Below are positions 20,994-30,040 of a stretch of DNA of 64,000 nt, one piece after another. A program made the position numbers and the translations under genes. The stretch's first letter is position 1. Each line of letters opens with the position of its first letter. Below the pieces are notes generated by a model. That model did no database searches. It saw nothing but the letters and a program-made list of their open reading frames with translations, and was not told where the DNA came from. Source of the stretch: SAR86 cluster bacterium AG-422-O05 (lineage in GTDB: Bacteria > Pseudomonadota > Gammaproteobacteria > Magnimaribacterales > D2472); contig QCMW01000001.1 in assembly GCA_003213495.1 (NCBI GenBank), positions 496,001 to 560,000 of the forward strand, given 5' to 3'.

Positions 20994-21145
20994 TACATAT
21001 CCCCAGTAACTTTAGAAACAACCATAAAATAAATAAAATAATATAAAAATTGTTTCTTATAATTTTCCGAACCTGAAATTATATACTTATATAAGGGGTA
21101 AGGTCTAATAATTACACATTATCTTCGGTTAGAAATATTGTGATA

Positions 21146-21166
21146 ATATACCCCCCATGGGTATAT
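21146..21166. promoter_or_regulatory. Candidate CsoR-family operator
   Basis: Perfect inverted repeat ATATACCC-CCCAT-GGGTATAT with A/T-rich flanks and C/G tract; the operon encodes a CsoR-family repressor. Confidence 0.6.
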
Positions 21167-21753
21167 ATATTAAAATATTCTTTATCTTTTTATTGGTTTC
21201 GAATACTGAAGCTAGACCTATCTCTTATTCTGGTGGTCATACTCTTATGCATTTCAATGATAATATGAAAGAGTCAATTTACTATCATTACTCACCCAGT
21301 TTCAAATATTCCATTGGTGTTGAAGAGCTAAATAATAAAATTTTTGATCGCTCTGAGACTAATCTAAGATTTACTTATCTTGTAAACAGAAAAAATACAA
21401 AAAATTCTCAAAGAAATTTTTATTTTCAGTCCGCAGTTTCTACAAAAAACAGTAATTTTATTTATGGCGTTCATGGTGACTGGGAAACTAGACGTTATTT
21501 TATTGGATTTGACTATAAAGAAATTAAAAACATAATAGATTATACGGATAAGCATATTCAGCTGGGCTTTGCCCCATATTTAGGTGCATATGGAGATTTA
21601 CATACTTGGTTAATGTTAAAAACAAAAAAAAATTCATTAAGCAAGAAACAAATTACATACCCAGTGGTGAAATTCTTTAAAGGTAACGTCCTGCTAGAAT
21701 TGGGCTACGACAAGAAAACAGATTGGGATATTCATTTAATGTACAGATTTTAG
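21157..21753 (+). CDS. Predicted exported/outer-membrane beta-barrel-like protein
   Basis: Signal peptide, beta-rich alternation, C-terminal ...HLMYRF; first gene of metal operon. Confidence 0.65.
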   Translation: MGIYIKIFFIFLLVSNTEARPISYSGGHTLMHFNDNMKESIYYHYSPSFKYSIGVEELNNKIFDRSETNLRFTYLVNRKNTKNSQRNFYFQSAVSTKNSNFIYGVHGDWETRRYFIGFDYKEIKNIIDYTDKHIQLGFAPYLGAYGDLHTWLMLKTKKNSLSKKQITYPVVKFFKGNVLLELGYDKKTDWDIHLMYRF

Positions 21754-21762
21754 GATAAACAT

Positions 21763-22158
21763 ATGATTAGATTATTATTTATTACTATATTTTCGATTAA
21801 TTTGATTTCTTCTGACGAAGATCATCATATGCATCAAAATTCTCATAATCATTATGTTTATGTTCAAGGAGAAAAATTAGAGGTTGATCAAGATCGTTTC
21901 AAAAGCTTTCTTGATGGGCTCAGTAACTCTCAAGTAGCTGTTGTTAATGTAAATGGCATGGTGTGTGATTTTTGTGCTCGAGGTATTGAAAAGACTTTTG
22001 TGAAAGACAAAGCTGTTAAAAGAATTGATGTTGACCTTGAAAGAGGTAAGGTATTAATTGCCTATACAAAAGAGAAAGAAATTGATTTTGATGAAATCAA
22101 AAGCAAAATCCTAGCAAATGGACAAAATGCAATTGATTTTTCAATTTTAAACATTTGA
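21763..22158 (+). CDS. Exported heavy-metal-associated (HMA/MerP-like) domain protein
   Basis: Signal peptide, His-rich segment, VNVNGMVCDFCARGIEKTFVKDKAVKRIDVDLERGKVLI. Confidence 0.85.
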   Translation: MIRLLFITIFSINLISSDEDHHMHQNSHNHYVYVQGEKLEVDQDRFKSFLDGLSNSQVAVVNVNGMVCDFCARGIEKTFVKDKAVKRIDVDLERGKVLIAYTKEKEIDFDEIKSKILANGQNAIDFSILNI

Positions 22159-22168
22159 TAATAATTAC

Positions 22169-22534
22169 ATGCAAGACAAAACTGCTAATTTTTTCTCGCT
22201 ATTTGCTTCTTCATCAACACTTATATGTTGTGCCTTACCAGCAATTTTTGTTTCAATTGGAGCTGGAGCAACCTTTGCAAGTCTAATAACATCTTTTCCT
22301 TTGCTTATAACCCTTTCAAAATATAAGCTTTATATAACTTTTTTCGCTTTAATAACGATAGCGATAGCGGGTTATTTTAATTACAAAACATATTATATGC
22401 CTTGTCCTGCAGACCCTGAATTAGGCAGAATGTGTTTACAGACAAGAAGACGTTCTAGAATTGTCTATTATATATCTGTAACTATATTTGTTTTTGCCAC
22501 TGTATTTACCTATATCATCCCACAAATAATTTGA
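22169..22534 (+). CDS. MerT-like small metal transport membrane protein
   Basis: TM1 CC pair (STLICCALPAIFVSIG), CPADPELGRMC loop, 3-4 TM. Confidence 0.72.
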   Translation: MQDKTANFFSLFASSSTLICCALPAIFVSIGAGATFASLITSFPLLITLSKYKLYITFFALITIAIAGYFNYKTYYMPCPADPELGRMCLQTRRRSRIVYYISVTIFVFATVFTYIIPQII

Positions 22535-22797
22535 TTATGAGTCATCCATGTCACAGAGATAAAATTGCAAATATTAGGCGAATAAAAGGTCAATTAGAGG
22601 GCATTGAGCGAATGATAAATGAAGAAAAATACTGCATAGATATACTTAATCAAATGAAAGCTATCAAAAATGCGTTGACTTCTGTTGAGGCTAAGATTTT
22701 AGAAACTCATCTCAAAGAGTGCGTTAAGGATTCTCTTGATACAGCACAAGATAATCAAGCCAAAATAGATGAAATTATCAATGTCTTAAAAAGATGA
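22531..22797 (+). CDS. CsoR/RcnR/FrmR-family metal-sensing repressor
   Basis: RIKGQLEGIERMINEEKYCIDILNQMKAIKNALTSVEAKILETHLKEC; C33-H58-C62 spacing matches Cu(I)-CsoR. Confidence 0.9.
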   Translation: MIMSHPCHRDKIANIRRIKGQLEGIERMINEEKYCIDILNQMKAIKNALTSVEAKILETHLKECVKDSLDTAQDNQAKIDEIINVLKR

Positions 22798-23453
22798 AAT
22801 TAATTGTCAGAAATATACACAAATATTTAAGTTTTTTTATCTCTGTTCAATTACTTTTATGGACAGTGTCAGGAATTTATTTTGCTTTTAACAAGATTGA
22901 GCTTGTAAGAGGGGAGCAATATCGTTTAACTAATTTTTCAGATATTAATTTAGGAGAAATAGAGTTTGATATTCCAAAAACCTCAAATCTTGAAATAAAA
23001 AAACGACTAGATAAAACAATCTTAATTTTATCTTCTGACTCAGGAAGCTTTTATCTAAACTCAGATGGAACTCCTTTAGATAAAATCTCTTCTGAAATGG
23101 GAATGCTTTTAGTACAACAAAACACAACATTAACCCCCATAGAGGCAGAAGAAATCACATCTTCAAAAAAAGGTTCAGAATATAGAGGAAGAACCTTGCC
23201 TTTGATGAAAGTAATATCCAAGAATGAAAAAGATAAACTTATAAATGTATATTTAAATGTTTACTCTGGTGAAGTCACTGCAATTCGATCAATGCAATGG
23301 AAGATTTGGGATTTAATGTGGGGATTTCATATTATGGATTGGCAGGAAAGAGATAATATAGATAATCTTTTCTTAAAAATCTTTTCAATTCTTGCGCTAG
23401 TCAGTTCAATATCAGGAATTTTGTTATTTTTTAAGATTGACTTCAAAAAGTAA
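22794..23453 (+). CDS. PepSY-domain/PepSY-associated TM protein
   Basis: IHKYLSFFISVQLLLWTVSGIYFAFNKIELVRGEQYR; C-terminal TM. Confidence 0.75.
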   Translation: MKLIVRNIHKYLSFFISVQLLLWTVSGIYFAFNKIELVRGEQYRLTNFSDINLGEIEFDIPKTSNLEIKKRLDKTILILSSDSGSFYLNSDGTPLDKISSEMGMLLVQQNTTLTPIEAEEITSSKKGSEYRGRTLPLMKVISKNEKDKLINVYLNVYSGEVTAIRSMQWKIWDLMWGFHIMDWQERDNIDNLFLKIFSILALVSSISGILLFFKIDFKK

Positions 23454-24082: not shown

Positions 24083-25642
24083 ATGTCAAAAAATAACGCA
24101 GATTTTAAACAAACTCTTTGGAAGACAGCAGACTCACTTCGTGCTCAGATGGATGCTGCTGAATATAAACATATTGTTTTAGGTCTTATCTTTCTCAAAT
24201 ATATTTCCGACTCCTTCACAGAACAAAAAGAAAAAATCAAAGAGATGGTTACCAACCCTGACTCTGATTTTTTTATCAGTGAAAACTTATCAGACATCAA
24301 TGAACAAGATCTAGAGGATAGAGACTACTACACACAAGATAACGTTTTCTGGGTTCCGGAGTCTGCCAGATGGGAAACACTCAGAGATCAAGCAAAGCAA
24401 CCAGATATTGGTGCCATTATTGATCGCGCAATGGGAGATATAGAATCTGAAAACCAATCACTGAGAGGAAAACTTGATAAACGTTTTGGTAGAACTCAAC
24501 TATCAGAAGGTAAATTGGGTGAACTTATTGATCTTATCTCAACCATAGGATTTTCAGACGATCAAAAAGCAGGAGACATGTTAGGAGAGGTCTATGAATA
24601 CTTCTTGGGTCAATTTGCATCTGCAGAGGGCAAGAAAGGAGGGCAGTTCTATACACCAAGACATGTTGTTAAAACTCTAGTTGCAGTTCTCTCACCACAT
24701 AAGGGCAGAGTCTATGATCCATGTTGCGGTTCAGGCGGAATGTTTGTGCAAAGTGAAGAGTTTGTAAGATCTCATGGTGGAAGACGGGATGACATTTCTA
24801 TTTATGGACAAGAAAGCAATCCAACCACTTGGAGATTGGCAGCAATGAACTTAGCAATAAGGGGTTTTGCAGCAGATCTAGGTAAAGAACCTGGCGATAC
24901 CTTTGCAAAAGACCAACATCCAGATACTAAATTTGATTACGTTATTGCCAATCCACCTTTTAATATCTCTGATTGGGGTGGAGAGAAATACGAAGACGAT
25001 CCTCGTTGGATTTATGGTAGACCTCCAGTGGGTAATGCCAATTATGCATGGTTACAACATATGTTATGGAAACTAAGACCAGGTGGACAAGCAGGGGTGG
25101 TGCTGGCAAATGGTTCCATGAGTTCAACTACTTCCGGTGAAGGTGAGATCAGAGAGGCAATGATCAAAGGTGATGTGGTTGAAGTGATGATTGCACTTCC
25201 AGGACAATTATTCTTAAACACTCAAATTCCTGTTTGTTTGTGGTTTTTAACAAATGATAAAACTGCAAATGGTAGAAATAGAAAAAATGAAACCCTTTTC
25301 ATAGATGCAAGAAACCTTGGAACTATGGAAACAAGAGTTCTTAAAGTTTTAACAGATGAAGATATTAAGAAAGTTCAGGATACAGTTTCTTCTTGGAGAA
25401 CTGGAGATGGATATGAAGACATTGAAGGTTATTGCAAAAGTTCAACTACTGAAGAAATTGAAAAGAATAGTTTTGTCTTAACCCCTGGAAGATATGTTGG
25501 TTTTGCAGAGGAAGATGACGATGGGATCCCCTTTGAAGAAAAGATGAAAATATTAAAACAATCACTTGATAAGTTAAGAGATGAATCTAACCAACTAGAT
25601 ATTAAATTAAAAGAAAACTTGTCAAAAATTGGATATGAATAA
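24083..25642 (+). CDS. hsdM: Type I restriction-modification system DNA methyltransferase subunit
   Basis: LWKTADSLRAQMDAAEYKHIVLGLIFLKYISD, GQFYTPRHVV, DPCCGSGGMF, NPPF. Confidence 0.97.
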   Translation: MSKNNADFKQTLWKTADSLRAQMDAAEYKHIVLGLIFLKYISDSFTEQKEKIKEMVTNPDSDFFISENLSDINEQDLEDRDYYTQDNVFWVPESARWETLRDQAKQPDIGAIIDRAMGDIESENQSLRGKLDKRFGRTQLSEGKLGELIDLISTIGFSDDQKAGDMLGEVYEYFLGQFASAEGKKGGQFYTPRHVVKTLVAVLSPHKGRVYDPCCGSGGMFVQSEEFVRSHGGRRDDISIYGQESNPTTWRLAAMNLAIRGFAADLGKEPGDTFAKDQHPDTKFDYVIANPPFNISDWGGEKYEDDPRWIYGRPPVGNANYAWLQHMLWKLRPGGQAGVVLANGSMSSTTSGEGEIREAMIKGDVVEVMIALPGQLFLNTQIPVCLWFLTNDKTANGRNRKNETLFIDARNLGTMETRVLKVLTDEDIKKVQDTVSSWRTGDGYEDIEGYCKSSTTEEIEKNSFVLTPGRYVGFAEEDDDGIPFEEKMKILKQSLDKLRDESNQLDIKLKENLSKIGYE

Positions 25643-26942
25643 CTGGAATCAAGTTTCTCTTCAAGAAGTTTGTAAAATTACGAGAGGTGCTTCACCTCGT
25701 CCAATAAAAGACTGGATTACTGAAGACCTAAAAGGAATACCATGGGTAAAAATTAGTGATGCAACAGCATCTAAAACAAGATTTATAAAACATACTTCAG
25801 AAAGGATCAAACAAGAAGGCATATCAAAGAGTGTTTCAGTTGTTCCAGGTGATTTGATAGTCTCAAATAGTGCAACACCCGGTCTTCCAAAATTTATGGA
25901 TATTAATGCTTGTATTCACGACGGATGGTTATTGATTAGAGAATTTGAAGGCATTGATAAAGAGTTTTTATATTATCTATTAATTAATGATAGAAAATAT
26001 TTGGTTTCTCAGGGGACTGGAACAGTTTTTACAAATCTAAAGACCGATATTTTAAAAAATCACATTATTCAACTACCAACTATTAATGTTCAAAAAACCA
26101 TTGCAAGTTTTTTATCAAAATTAGATTCAAAAATAGAACTCAATCAAAAAATGAATGAAACTCTTGAAGAGATTGTAAAGACACTCTTTAAATCTTGGTT
26201 TATAGACTTTGATCCAGTAAGAGCAAAAGCAGAAGGAAGACCTACAGGACTATCAAAAGAAATAAGTGATTTATTTCCTGATTCTTTTGAAGATTCTGAG
26301 TTGGGTGAGATACCTGAGGGATTTAAAGTTGATAGTGTAGATAACCAATATGATATTTCTATTGGCAAAACACCACCAAGGAAAGAACCTCAGTGGTTTT
26401 CTGAGAACCAACAAGATATTCCATGGGCATCCATTAAAGATATGGGTGATACAGGTGTATACATCAATAAAACTTCAGAGTTTTTAACTAACGAAGCAAT
26501 AGAAAAATTTAATATTCGTGTGATACCAAAAAATAATGTCATTCTTAGTTTTAAATTGACAGTAGGAAGAGTTTCAATTCTTCAAAAAGATATGTGCACA
26601 AATGAAGCAATAGCACACTTTGTTCCAAAGGATAATGATCTAAGTAAGGTTTTTACTTATTGCTTATTAAAATCAATAAGGTATGAATCTCTATCCAGCA
26701 CCTCCTCTATAGCAACCGCAGTTAATTCAAAGATCATTAAAGCAATGAAGTGCATTTTTCCTAGTAAAGCACTTTTAATTGCATTTAATGAGTTTTGTCA
26801 TCCCATTTATAAAAAAATTGAAACAAATACTAATGAAATTGAAACACTATTATCTCTTAGAGATGCTTTGTTACCAAAACTAATATCTGGAGAATTAAAG
26901 ATTCCAGACGCAGAGAATTTCGTTGATGAGGTAGGTATCTAA
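25629..26942 (+). CDS. hsdS: Type I restriction-modification specificity subunit
   Basis: Two target-recognition domains and central conserved region LFKSWFIDFDPVRAKAEGRPTGL; C-terminal RDALLPKLISGEL. Confidence 0.96.
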   Translation: MDMNNWNQVSLQEVCKITRGASPRPIKDWITEDLKGIPWVKISDATASKTRFIKHTSERIKQEGISKSVSVVPGDLIVSNSATPGLPKFMDINACIHDGWLLIREFEGIDKEFLYYLLINDRKYLVSQGTGTVFTNLKTDILKNHIIQLPTINVQKTIASFLSKLDSKIELNQKMNETLEEIVKTLFKSWFIDFDPVRAKAEGRPTGLSKEISDLFPDSFEDSELGEIPEGFKVDSVDNQYDISIGKTPPRKEPQWFSENQQDIPWASIKDMGDTGVYINKTSEFLTNEAIEKFNIRVIPKNNVILSFKLTVGRVSILQKDMCTNEAIAHFVPKDNDLSKVFTYCLLKSIRYESLSSTSSIATAVNSKIIKAMKCIFPSKALLIAFNEFCHPIYKKIETNTNEIETLLSLRDALLPKLISGELKIPDAENFVDEVGI

Positions 26943-29900
26943 TGTCTTTAATTACTGAAGAACAAGTTGAACTACAAAGTATAGAGTGGTTTAAGGAACT
27001 TGGATATCAGTATAAAGATGGTTATGACATTGCTCCTGAGGGAGTAAATCCTGAAAGGGATGATTTTAGAAAAGTTATTCTTGAAGAAAGACTTAAGTCA
27101 GCACTTATTAGAATAAATCCTGATATTCCTAATCAGACTATTCAAAATTCTATACCTCAAATATTAAATCCTAATATTCCAGGATTGCTTAACTGCAATC
27201 GTGAGATACATAAGTGGGTTACAAAAGGATTAAAAGTATCTTTCATGGAAGACAATCAGGAGGTTGGAAGACAACTTAAGTTAATAGACTTTGAAAGCAT
27301 TGATAACAACGATTGGTTAGTTGTAAATCAGTTTGAGATACAAGGTGATCAAAGACTTAGAAGACCTGATGTTTTGGTTTTTGTAAATGGATTGCCTTTG
27401 GGAGTTATTGAACTCAAGAATCCTGCAGATGAAAAAGCAGATATATGGTCTGCCTATAATCAATTGCAAACTTATAAAGAAAATATACCCGATTTATTTA
27501 ATACCAATGGAGTATTAGTTATCTCTGATGGTATTCAGGCAAGAATGGGTTCTTTAACTGCACCGCAAGAAAGATTCATGAGGTGGAGAACTATAGATGG
27601 TGAGACCACAGATCCTTTAGGCGCTTATCAAGATTTAGAAACCCTAATAAGAGGACTTTTTGACAAAGAGACTTTCCTAAACTTTATTAGATACTTTTGT
27701 ATTTTTGAAGACGATAAAACTATTATTAAAAAGGTTGCTGGATATCATCAGTTTTATGCAGTCCAAAAAGCACTTGAGAAAGTAGTTGAAGCATCGCAAG
27801 TTGATGGTAGTAAGAAAGGTGGTGTTGTTTGGCATACGCAAGGAGCAGGTAAGAGTATTGAAATGACTTGTCTTGCGGGAAGAATTATTTCTGAACCAAG
27901 ACTAGGCAATCCTACTATTGTCATGGTCACTGATAGACAAGATTTAGACGGACAACTCTTTGGAGTATTCAATGATTCAGGAGAATTATTAGGAGAAGCA
28001 CCAAAACAAGCAGAGACGATTAAAGAACTTAAAGACTTACTTGCAGACAGACCTTCAGGTGGAATTATTTTTACCACTATTCAGAAATTTAAACCTGAGA
28101 AAGGTGAAGACAAGTTCCCTGTCTTAACTGATAGACATAATGTTATTGTCATGTGTGATGAGGCACACAGAACTCAATATGGATTTAAGGGAGTTGTTGA
28201 TCAGAAAACAGGACAGATCAAATATGGTCTTGCTCGTGCTTTAAGAGATGGACTTCCCAATGCGACATTTCTTGCCTTCACTGGAACTCCAATATCTCAA
28301 GATGATAGAGATACTCAGGCAGTTTTTGGAGAGTATGTTGATGTCTATGATATTCAACAGGCAGTGGAAGATGGTGCAACAGTTCCAATCTACTTTGAAT
28401 CAAGATTAGCAAAAATTGAGATAGACGAATCTAAATTACCTACTATCGATGATGAAGTTGAAGACATCTTTGAGGATGGTATAGAAAGTGATGAACAACA
28501 AGAGAAAGCAAAATCTAAATGGTCACAAATTGAAGCATTGGTTGGTGCACAACCAAGATTAAAAGAAGTTGCAGAAGACCTTATTCAGCACTTTGAGACT
28601 CGACAAAAGACTCAACCTGGTAAAGCAATGATAGTTGGAATGAGTAGAGACATCTGTGCAAGACTTTACGATGAGTTAATCAAAATCAAACCAGAGTGGG
28701 ATAGTGAAGATCACAGATCTGGAGCAGTTAAAGTGGTTATGACTGCATCTGCAAGTGATGAAGAACATTTACAAAAACATCACACCTCAAAACAACAGAA
28801 GAAAGATTTAGAAAAACGATTTAAAGATCCATCTGATGAACTGCAAATAGTTATTGTCAGAGACATGTGGTTAACAGGATTTGATGCTCCTTGTTTGTCA
28901 ACTATGTATGTTGATAAACCCATGCAAGGTGCAAACTTGGCACAAGCAATAGCAAGAGTAAACAGAGTCTTTGCCGATAAACCAGGTGGTCTAATCGTTG
29001 ATTACATAGGAATTGCTCCTCAATTAAAAGAAGCACTAGCAACTTACAGTGCAAGCAAAGGAAGAGGCAAACCAACCATAGATGCTAGTGAGGCATTAAA
29101 AATTCTGGAAGAAAAGTTATCGGTGGCACGTGACTTGTTACATCCAGTTGATTGGTCTGATTATAAAACCAAAGCATTGCAACTTTTACCAGAATGTATT
29201 GATCATGTTTTGGAATTAGAAGATGGCAGGAAAAGATATTGTGATGTTGTCTTACAAATGACAAAAGCATTTGCATTATGTGGTGCAATGGATGAGGCAT
29301 TAATTTTTTCAGAAGAGGTAGCATTCCATCAGGCAGTCAGAGCACCTTTGATAAAAACTAACAGAAAGGGTGGAAGAGGAGAGTTTAAAGATACTGATTT
29401 TGAACTTAAACAACTTGTTTCAGAATCTCTTGTTTCTGGAGGTGTTTCAGATATCTTCCAAATTGCAGGTCTTGAATCTCCAGATATATCTATTCTTTCT
29501 GATGAATTTTTAAAAGAAGTGCAAAACATTAAACATAAAAATATTGCAGTTGAATTATTAGAAAAACTTCTTAACGATGAAGTGAAATCAAAATTTAGAA
29601 CAAATGTAGTAAAACAAAGAAAATTTAGTGATCTTCTTCAGAATGCGTTATCAAAATATCAAAACAGATCTATTGAAGCAGCACAGGTAATTGCAGAACT
29701 AATTGAGATGGCAAAAGAGTTTAAAAATGACATAGAGAAATCTAATTCCTTGAATTTAAACTCTGCTGAAAATGCTTTTTATGATGCTTTATCGAATAAC
29801 AAATCTGCAGAGGAGTTGATGGGAGAAGAGGTCTTAGTTCAAATTTCTAGAGAGATTGCAGAAAAGTTAAGAAAAAATGTCACAGTTGACTGGTCAGTAA

Positions 29901-30040
29901 GAGAATCAGTTAGAGCAAGACTTAGACTTTTAGTCAAAAACCTTTTAAGAAAATACAAATATCCGCCTGATCAGCAAGCAGAAGCAACCGAATTAGTTCT
30001 TTCACAGGCAGAAGTTATTTCAGAAGAATTAGTTGCCTAG
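26942..30040 (+). CDS. hsdR: Type I restriction endonuclease subunit R
   Basis: [24 protein letters not shown] nuclease motif, [10 protein letters not shown] Walker A, [9 protein letters not shown], C-terminal domain. Confidence 0.97.
   Translation: [1032 protein letters not shown]

What the first reader, a model, noticed from the sequence alone, without database searches (positions are those of the whole stretch)
21139..21170. Candidate CsoR operator overlapping the -10 element and an apparently leaderless start codon
Seen: perfect inverted repeat ATATACCC-CCCAT-GGGTATAT (21146-21166) contains the ATG (21157) of the first gene in an operon that encodes a CsoR-family repressor three genes later. 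TGTGATAAT (21139-21147) looks like an extended -10, which would place transcription start at or a few bases before the ATG, with no room for a Shine-Dalgarno. Established: CsoR-family operators are C/G-tract palindromes flanked by A/T (TACCC...GGGTA type). Inference: autoregulated, leaderless operon with the operator doubling as coding sequence.
Basis: partly seen in the sequence, partly recalled or inferred. Interest (0 to 1): 0.65.

Follow-up and report, generated by a model that had tools for sequence, protein, structure and literature searches.

The report
Copper-repressor operator containing a start codon
In SAR86 and some other marine bacteria the DNA site where a copper-sensing repressor should bind also holds the start codon of the first gene it controls, so one short sequence serves as promoter end, repressor site, probable transcription start and first codons; the pieces are known, but locking them together this way appears undescribed.

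Summary
ATATACCC-CCCAT-GGGTATAT (21146-21166) contains the ATG (21157) of a five-gene operon whose fourth gene is a CsoR-family repressor. It is the only perfect TACCC-N5-GGGTA in the 1.28-Mb SAR86-type genome, which has one CsoR gene. It matches the published CsoR box (TATACCC-N5-GGGTATA; TAC-N9-GTA).

I located the first gene in relatives by protein homology alone. Of 62 distinct upstream regions, 57 carry a perfect palindrome with the start codon inside it (55 ATG, 2 GTG); one has a 4-nt spacer and one a degenerate box, both still holding ATG. The other three lack the box and no csoR was found nearby; two have a Shine-Dalgarno and all three have a different N-terminus. In the spacer NNN[A/G]T only the start-codon letters are invariant. 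In the perfect boxes that puts the A of ATG 8 nt downstream, the likeliest transcription start.

Leaderless, CsoR-type-repressed operons are known (Bradyrhizobium csoR, Mesorhizobium nreA), but there the operator is described as upstream of the start. This is a new variant of a known kind. Transcript start and repressor binding remain inferred.

The parts
21141..21149 (+). extended -10 element TGA-TAATAT (hexamer 21144-21149); its last four bases lie in the left operator arm
   Evidence: register fixed by relatives: TAnnAT at this place in 54 of 57 perfect boxes, CAATAT in 3; perfect TTGACA 16 nt upstream in L035, L036, L046, L054, L140
21146..21166 (.). CsoR box (operator) ATATACCC-CCCAT-GGGTATAT
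   Evidence: same arms and spacer length as the Bradyrhizobium CsoR-box and the 21-nt Streptomyces consensus
21157..21159 (+). start codon ATG inside the operator; its A is the predicted transcription start
   Evidence: first purine at a usable distance (8 nt) below the -10; ATG/GTG invariant in relatives
21157..21753 (+). gene 1: signal peptide + predicted 12-strand outer-membrane beta-barrel, no Pfam or NCBIfam match
   Evidence: pLDDT 87; porin-type barrels; KdgM TM 0.55/0.62
21763..22158 (+). gene 2: His-rich N-terminal part + heavy-metal-associated (HMA) domain; has an SD-like AGGA
   Evidence: (PF00403, 4e-6)
22169..22534 (+). gene 3: weakly MerT-like membrane protein with a CC pair
   Evidence: below curated cut-offs
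22537..22797 (+). gene 4: CsoR-family repressor with Y32/C33/H58/C62/E79
   Evidence: PF02583 9e-27; solved CsoR structures; ligands invariant wherever aligned
22794..23453 (+). gene 5: PepSY_TM-like protein; found in the closest relatives and L143, not in most of the other loci compared
   Evidence: (just under cut-off)

Best explanation
This is the autoregulatory operator-promoter of a metal (most likely Cu(I)) responsive envelope operon. Without metal, the CsoR-family product of gene 4 binds the 21-bp box, which covers the end of the -10, the start site and the first ten transcribed bases, and so shuts the promoter. When metal occupies C33/H58/C62 the repressor lets go; RNA polymerase starts at the A of the ATG, giving a leaderless mRNA 5'-AUGGGUAU... 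translated without a leader. The right operator arm is at once operator and codons 1-3, so every protein made from such a promoter begins Met-Gly-Ile/Met. Shown: the sequence, its conservation, its association with csoR, and the -10/start geometry. Inferred: repressor binding, metal identity, exact start and leaderless translation.
For: Perfect palindrome containing ATG, unique in the genome, beside the only csoR. Identical to the CsoR-box TATACCC-N5-GGGTATA and matches ATATACCCCTNAGGGGTATAT with TAC-N9-GTA spacing. First gene located by protein homology only: 57 of 62 distinct upstream regions have ATACCC-NNN[A/G]T-GGGTAT with the start codon inside; L021 (4-nt spacer) and L047 (degenerate box) also hold ATG; the other three lack the box, with no csoR found in about 6 kb around them. 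Two of those three have an SD, and they start MK/ML/MR rather than MG. In the spacer, positions 4-5 ([A/G]T) are invariant while their dyad partners 1-2 vary. Two exceptions to ATG are GTG. An unrelated first gene (DUF4396, L146) before csoR carries the same element and also starts MGI. In SAR92 locus L039 the barrel and HMA genes are gone; the arms and -10 remain but the ATG does not. Within the genus the element is 91-95% identical against 33-39% for the 36 nt upstream. CsoR ligands Y32, C33, H58, C62, E79 are invariant wherever aligned.
Against: No transcript 5' end or binding data exist for any member. SD absence is normal in this genome, so a leadered SD-less mRNA is not excluded on that ground. 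The SAR86 promoters mostly lack a good -35. The sequences are related by descent, so 57 regions are not 57 independent observations.
Confidence: 0.85

Rival explanations
1. The box is a true CsoR operator, but transcription starts further upstream and the mRNA has a short SD-less leader, like many genes of this genome.
For: Only 15 of 67 window ORFs show an SD-like motif; the SAR86 promoters have weak -35 hexamers.
Against: Conservation largely ends upstream of the -10; TAnnAT is locked 7 nt from the start codon in the perfect boxes; TTGACA sits 16 nt above it in several relatives; in the window the 7 nt between -10 and ATG offer no purine except directly after the hexamer.
Confidence: 0.09
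2. The ATG is there only because CATG is a symmetric operator centre; the real start codon is elsewhere.
For: CATG is self-complementary, and in L053 a box with a CATG centre lies upstream of a separate SD-led ATG.
Against: The ATG lies off the dyad centre; partner positions vary while [A/G]T does not; changes are to GTG only; no other start would give an intact signal peptide in most members; L039 loses the ATG when the first gene is gone.
Confidence: 0.03
3. The palindrome serves mainly as an RNA hairpin or is bound by another regulator.
For: Any inverted repeat in the 5' region could fold or bind another protein.
Against: With a start at 21157 only the right arm is transcribed; the box was not found where csoR was not found near the gene and it has the published CsoR-box sequence.
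Confidence: 0.03

Closest known systems
Bradyrhizobium liaoningense csoR-cueA divergon (PMC5057107)
   Same: CsoR-box TATACCC-N5-GGGTATA overlapping the -10; csoR mRNA starts at the A of its ATG by 5'-RACE; ligands C33-H58-C62 with the same numbering
   Different: the box is described as lying upstream of the transcription start over a bidirectional promoter, not holding the start codon; different operon (csoR and cueA)
Mesorhizobium nreAXY (PMC12724321)
   Same: CsoR/RcnR-family repressor, compact promoter, leaderless operon mRNA by 5'-RACE
   Different: operator lies in the -35/-10 spacer (-30 to -12), Ni-responsive, repressor gene is first
Streptomyces lividans CsoR type 2 operators (PMC3902906)
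   Same: 21-nt ATATACCCCTNAGGGGTATAT, TAC-N9-GTA
   Different: operators lie upstream of csoR and copZA genes; no start codon inside the box is described
Rhodobacter acuR-acuI-dddL (PMC3017554); lambda cI and Tn1721 tetR, cited in the same paper
   Same: repressor-controlled leaderless mRNAs in Gram-negative hosts
   Different: other repressor families; in acuR the inverted repeat overlaps the promoter; none reported there to hold the start codon within the operator

Membership tests
CsoR/RcnR repressor family | PF02583 fold/sequence | tested here: met
   93.7 bits against a 22.8 cut-off; matches solved CsoR chains
CsoR (Cu(I)) branch | C-H-C ligands plus Tyr/Glu second shell | tested here: met
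   Y32, C33, H58, C62, E79 invariant wherever aligned among 62 distinct sequences; metal not measured; meaning of Tyr/Glu is from general knowledge
CsoR operator (type 2 / CsoR-box) | TATACCC-N5-GGGTATA, TAC-N9-GTA | tested here: met
   window 21146-21166
CsoR operator (type 2 / CsoR-box) | bound by the cognate repressor and released by metal | not testable with these tools
   association of box and csoR only
Leaderless mRNA | transcript begins at the start codon | not testable with these tools
   predicted from -10/start geometry
Leaderless mRNA | -10 element about 6-8 nt above the start codon and no SD | tested here: met
   TAATAT 21144-21149, ATG 21157, no SD; SD absence is uninformative here
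MerT transporter | score above curated cut-off | tested here: not met
   18.9 against 32.9 (PF02411); filed only as MerT-like

The most novel reading that the evidence does not exclude
A conserved 'operator-as-codon' promoter type in marine Gammaproteobacteria and, by MAG labels, some Alphaproteobacteria: -10, start site, CsoR box and codons 1-3 are fused in about 23 bp, so the repressor site dictates the first amino acids (MGI/MGM) of unrelated proteins and makes leaderless translation obligatory for the metal response.
Probability: 0.6. Interest if true: 0.6.

Novelty: new variant of a known kind. Interest (0 to 1): 0.52.

Why it matters
It gives a sequence signature that predicts a regulated leaderless mRNA in abundant, mostly uncultured bacteria, where start sites are hard to measure. 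It is also a clean case of a DNA-binding site constraining protein sequence: the third base of Gly2 (GGT) is fixed by the operator arm while the third base of codon 3, just outside the arm, varies. Natural exceptions (GTG starts, csoR-less relatives with an SD, a SAR92 remnant without ATG) make the link between leaderless initiation and metal regulation directly testable.

Tried and rejected
The simple promoter scan did not report a promoter at the site; the -10 register had to come from relatives. The class- and phylum-wide motif scans show the exact element is rare outside this operon; two class hits are an unrelated wHTH-nucleotidyltransferase gene. A viral-contig scan gave 17 matches, almost all opening no long frame, treated as chance. 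Hits in G010 and G158 lie in coding sequence and are chance. Single-mismatch boxes in the own genome are no more frequent than the reversed control, so no wider regulon is claimed. Literature searches found no paper on leaderless genes in SAR86 and none describing this operon.

Full report
OBSERVATION. The repeat ATATACCC-CCCAT-GGGTATAT lies at 21146-21166, with the ATG of a 198-aa ORF at 21157. By count alone, perfect 8-bp arms with a 5-nt gap are expected about 2.5 times per window, so the repeat itself proves little. What carries the case is its identity, uniqueness and conservation: the motif with up to 3 mismatches is expected 0.02 times per window, and TACCC-N5-GGGTA is found without mismatch only here in 1.28 Mb, at the head of the operon that contains the only csoR gene.

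OPERON. Gene 1 is a signal-peptide protein with no Pfam or NCBIfam match. AlphaFold gives a 12-strand barrel (pLDDT 87), closest to outer-membrane porin-type barrels such as KdgM. Gene 2 is an HMA-domain protein, gene 3 weakly MerT-like, gene 4 CsoR (PF02583, 9e-27), gene 5 PepSY-like. Genes 1-4 travel together in most SAR86 and related loci examined. The nearest named relatives are SAR86 single-cell genomes.

RELATIVES, WITHOUT PATTERN BIAS. I located gene 1 by tblastn of its mature part, then read the DNA upstream. Of 62 distinct regions, 57 have ATACCC-N5-GGGTAT with the start codon inside. L021 has a 4-nt spacer and L047, a distant (about one third identical) locus labelled Alphaproteobacteria, a degenerate TACCCCAATGAGGTA; both keep the ATG in the box. 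The remaining three (L168, L169, L171) have no box; no csoR was found in about 6 kb around them. L168 and L171 have SD motifs, L169 follows a tRNA-like sequence directly, and their proteins start MK, ML and MR rather than MG. In five g15 loci the ATG in the box opens a short frame (see noticed items), so there the link to gene 1 is indirect. Many of these loci were first fetched through csoR or the motif; the homology step removes pattern bias in reading the start, not in how all loci entered the set. The class-wide search with the gene-1 profile was the independent draw: of 10 genomes found, 7 have the box and 3 do not.

START-CODON SIGNATURE. Spacers are CCCAT 27, CCTAT 17, CCAAT 3, TCCAT 3, CCCGT 2, and one each of CTTAT, ACCAT, TGTAT, TATAT, CATAT. 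Only positions 4-5 ([A/G]T) are invariant; their dyad partners vary. Dyad symmetry cannot explain this; a start codon can. The two departures from ATG are GTG (L143, L144). The element also precedes an unrelated DUF4396 gene before csoR in L146, which again starts MGI. In SAR92 locus L039 the barrel and HMA genes are lost and merT truncated; -35, -10 and both arms persist (TACCCTGCTGGGGTA) but the ATG does not. This is a single instance.

PROMOTER REGISTER. In the perfect boxes the hexamer ending at the T of TACCC is TAnnAT in 54 of 57 and CAATAT in 3. Perfect TTGACA lies 16 nt upstream in L035, L036, L046, L054 and L140, and TTGACT in L041 and L042. The first purine at a usable distance is the A of ATG, 8 nt below the hexamer. 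That this is the start is inference.

LIMITS. Upstream sequence outside the element is only 33-39% identical within the genus against 91-95% inside it. The sequences share descent and are not independent counts. Organism labels of metagenome-assembled records may be wrong.

KNOWN WORK. The box equals the CsoR-box of Bradyrhizobium liaoningense (TATACCC-N5-GGGTATA), whose csoR mRNA starts at its ATG by RACE (PMC5057107), and fits the Streptomyces consensus ATATACCCCTNAGGGGTATAT with TAC-N9-GTA (PMC3902906). Mesorhizobium nreAXY is another leaderless operon under a CsoR/RcnR repressor, with the operator in the -35/-10 spacer (PMC12724321). So leaderless mRNA plus CsoR control is known; the operator holding the start codon and codons 2-3, conserved across lineages, is the new part as far as the searched library shows. 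I read passages of these papers, not the full texts.

VERDICT. It is a new variant of a known kind: confidence 0.85 in the mechanism as stated, interest 0.52.

Noticed in passing
L011, L013, L016, L017, L123 (genus g15; ORF1 start, e.g. L011:108): In these SAR86 genomes the leaderless frame stops after MGIRIIFFFA at a T9 run with a TAATG overlap; one extra U would read through to a 200-aa gene 1 with an intact signal peptide. All five sequences keep the T9 run, suggesting transcriptional slippage rather than a random error.
   Followed up: partly
L154 and L161 (start codon at locus position 1514 in the matching strand): An unrelated MarR-like wHTH + nucleotidyltransferase gene has TACCC/GGGTA repeats running over its ATG (TATAATACCCAAAATGGGTATTAAG), possibly an independent case of an operator over a leaderless start.
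   Followed up: partly
L146:1475-1926: DUF4396 gene, then csoR and a probable cation-efflux (CDF-like) gene, under the same operator/start element.
   Followed up: partly
window 24083-30040: A type I restriction-modification-like set of ORFs lies next to the operon; only the own genome and 4 others of the genus gave a csoR match (one of them a weak fragment), so the region may be a variable island.
   Followed up: no
window 1-64000: Only 15 of 67 ORFs of 100 aa or more have an SD-like 4-mer near a start; this SAR86 genome seems to depend little on Shine-Dalgarno.
   Followed up: partly
L047 upstream of gene 1: Tandem boxes: TATACCCTGTATAGGTATA in the -35/-10 spacer plus a degenerate box over the ATG.
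   Followed up: no
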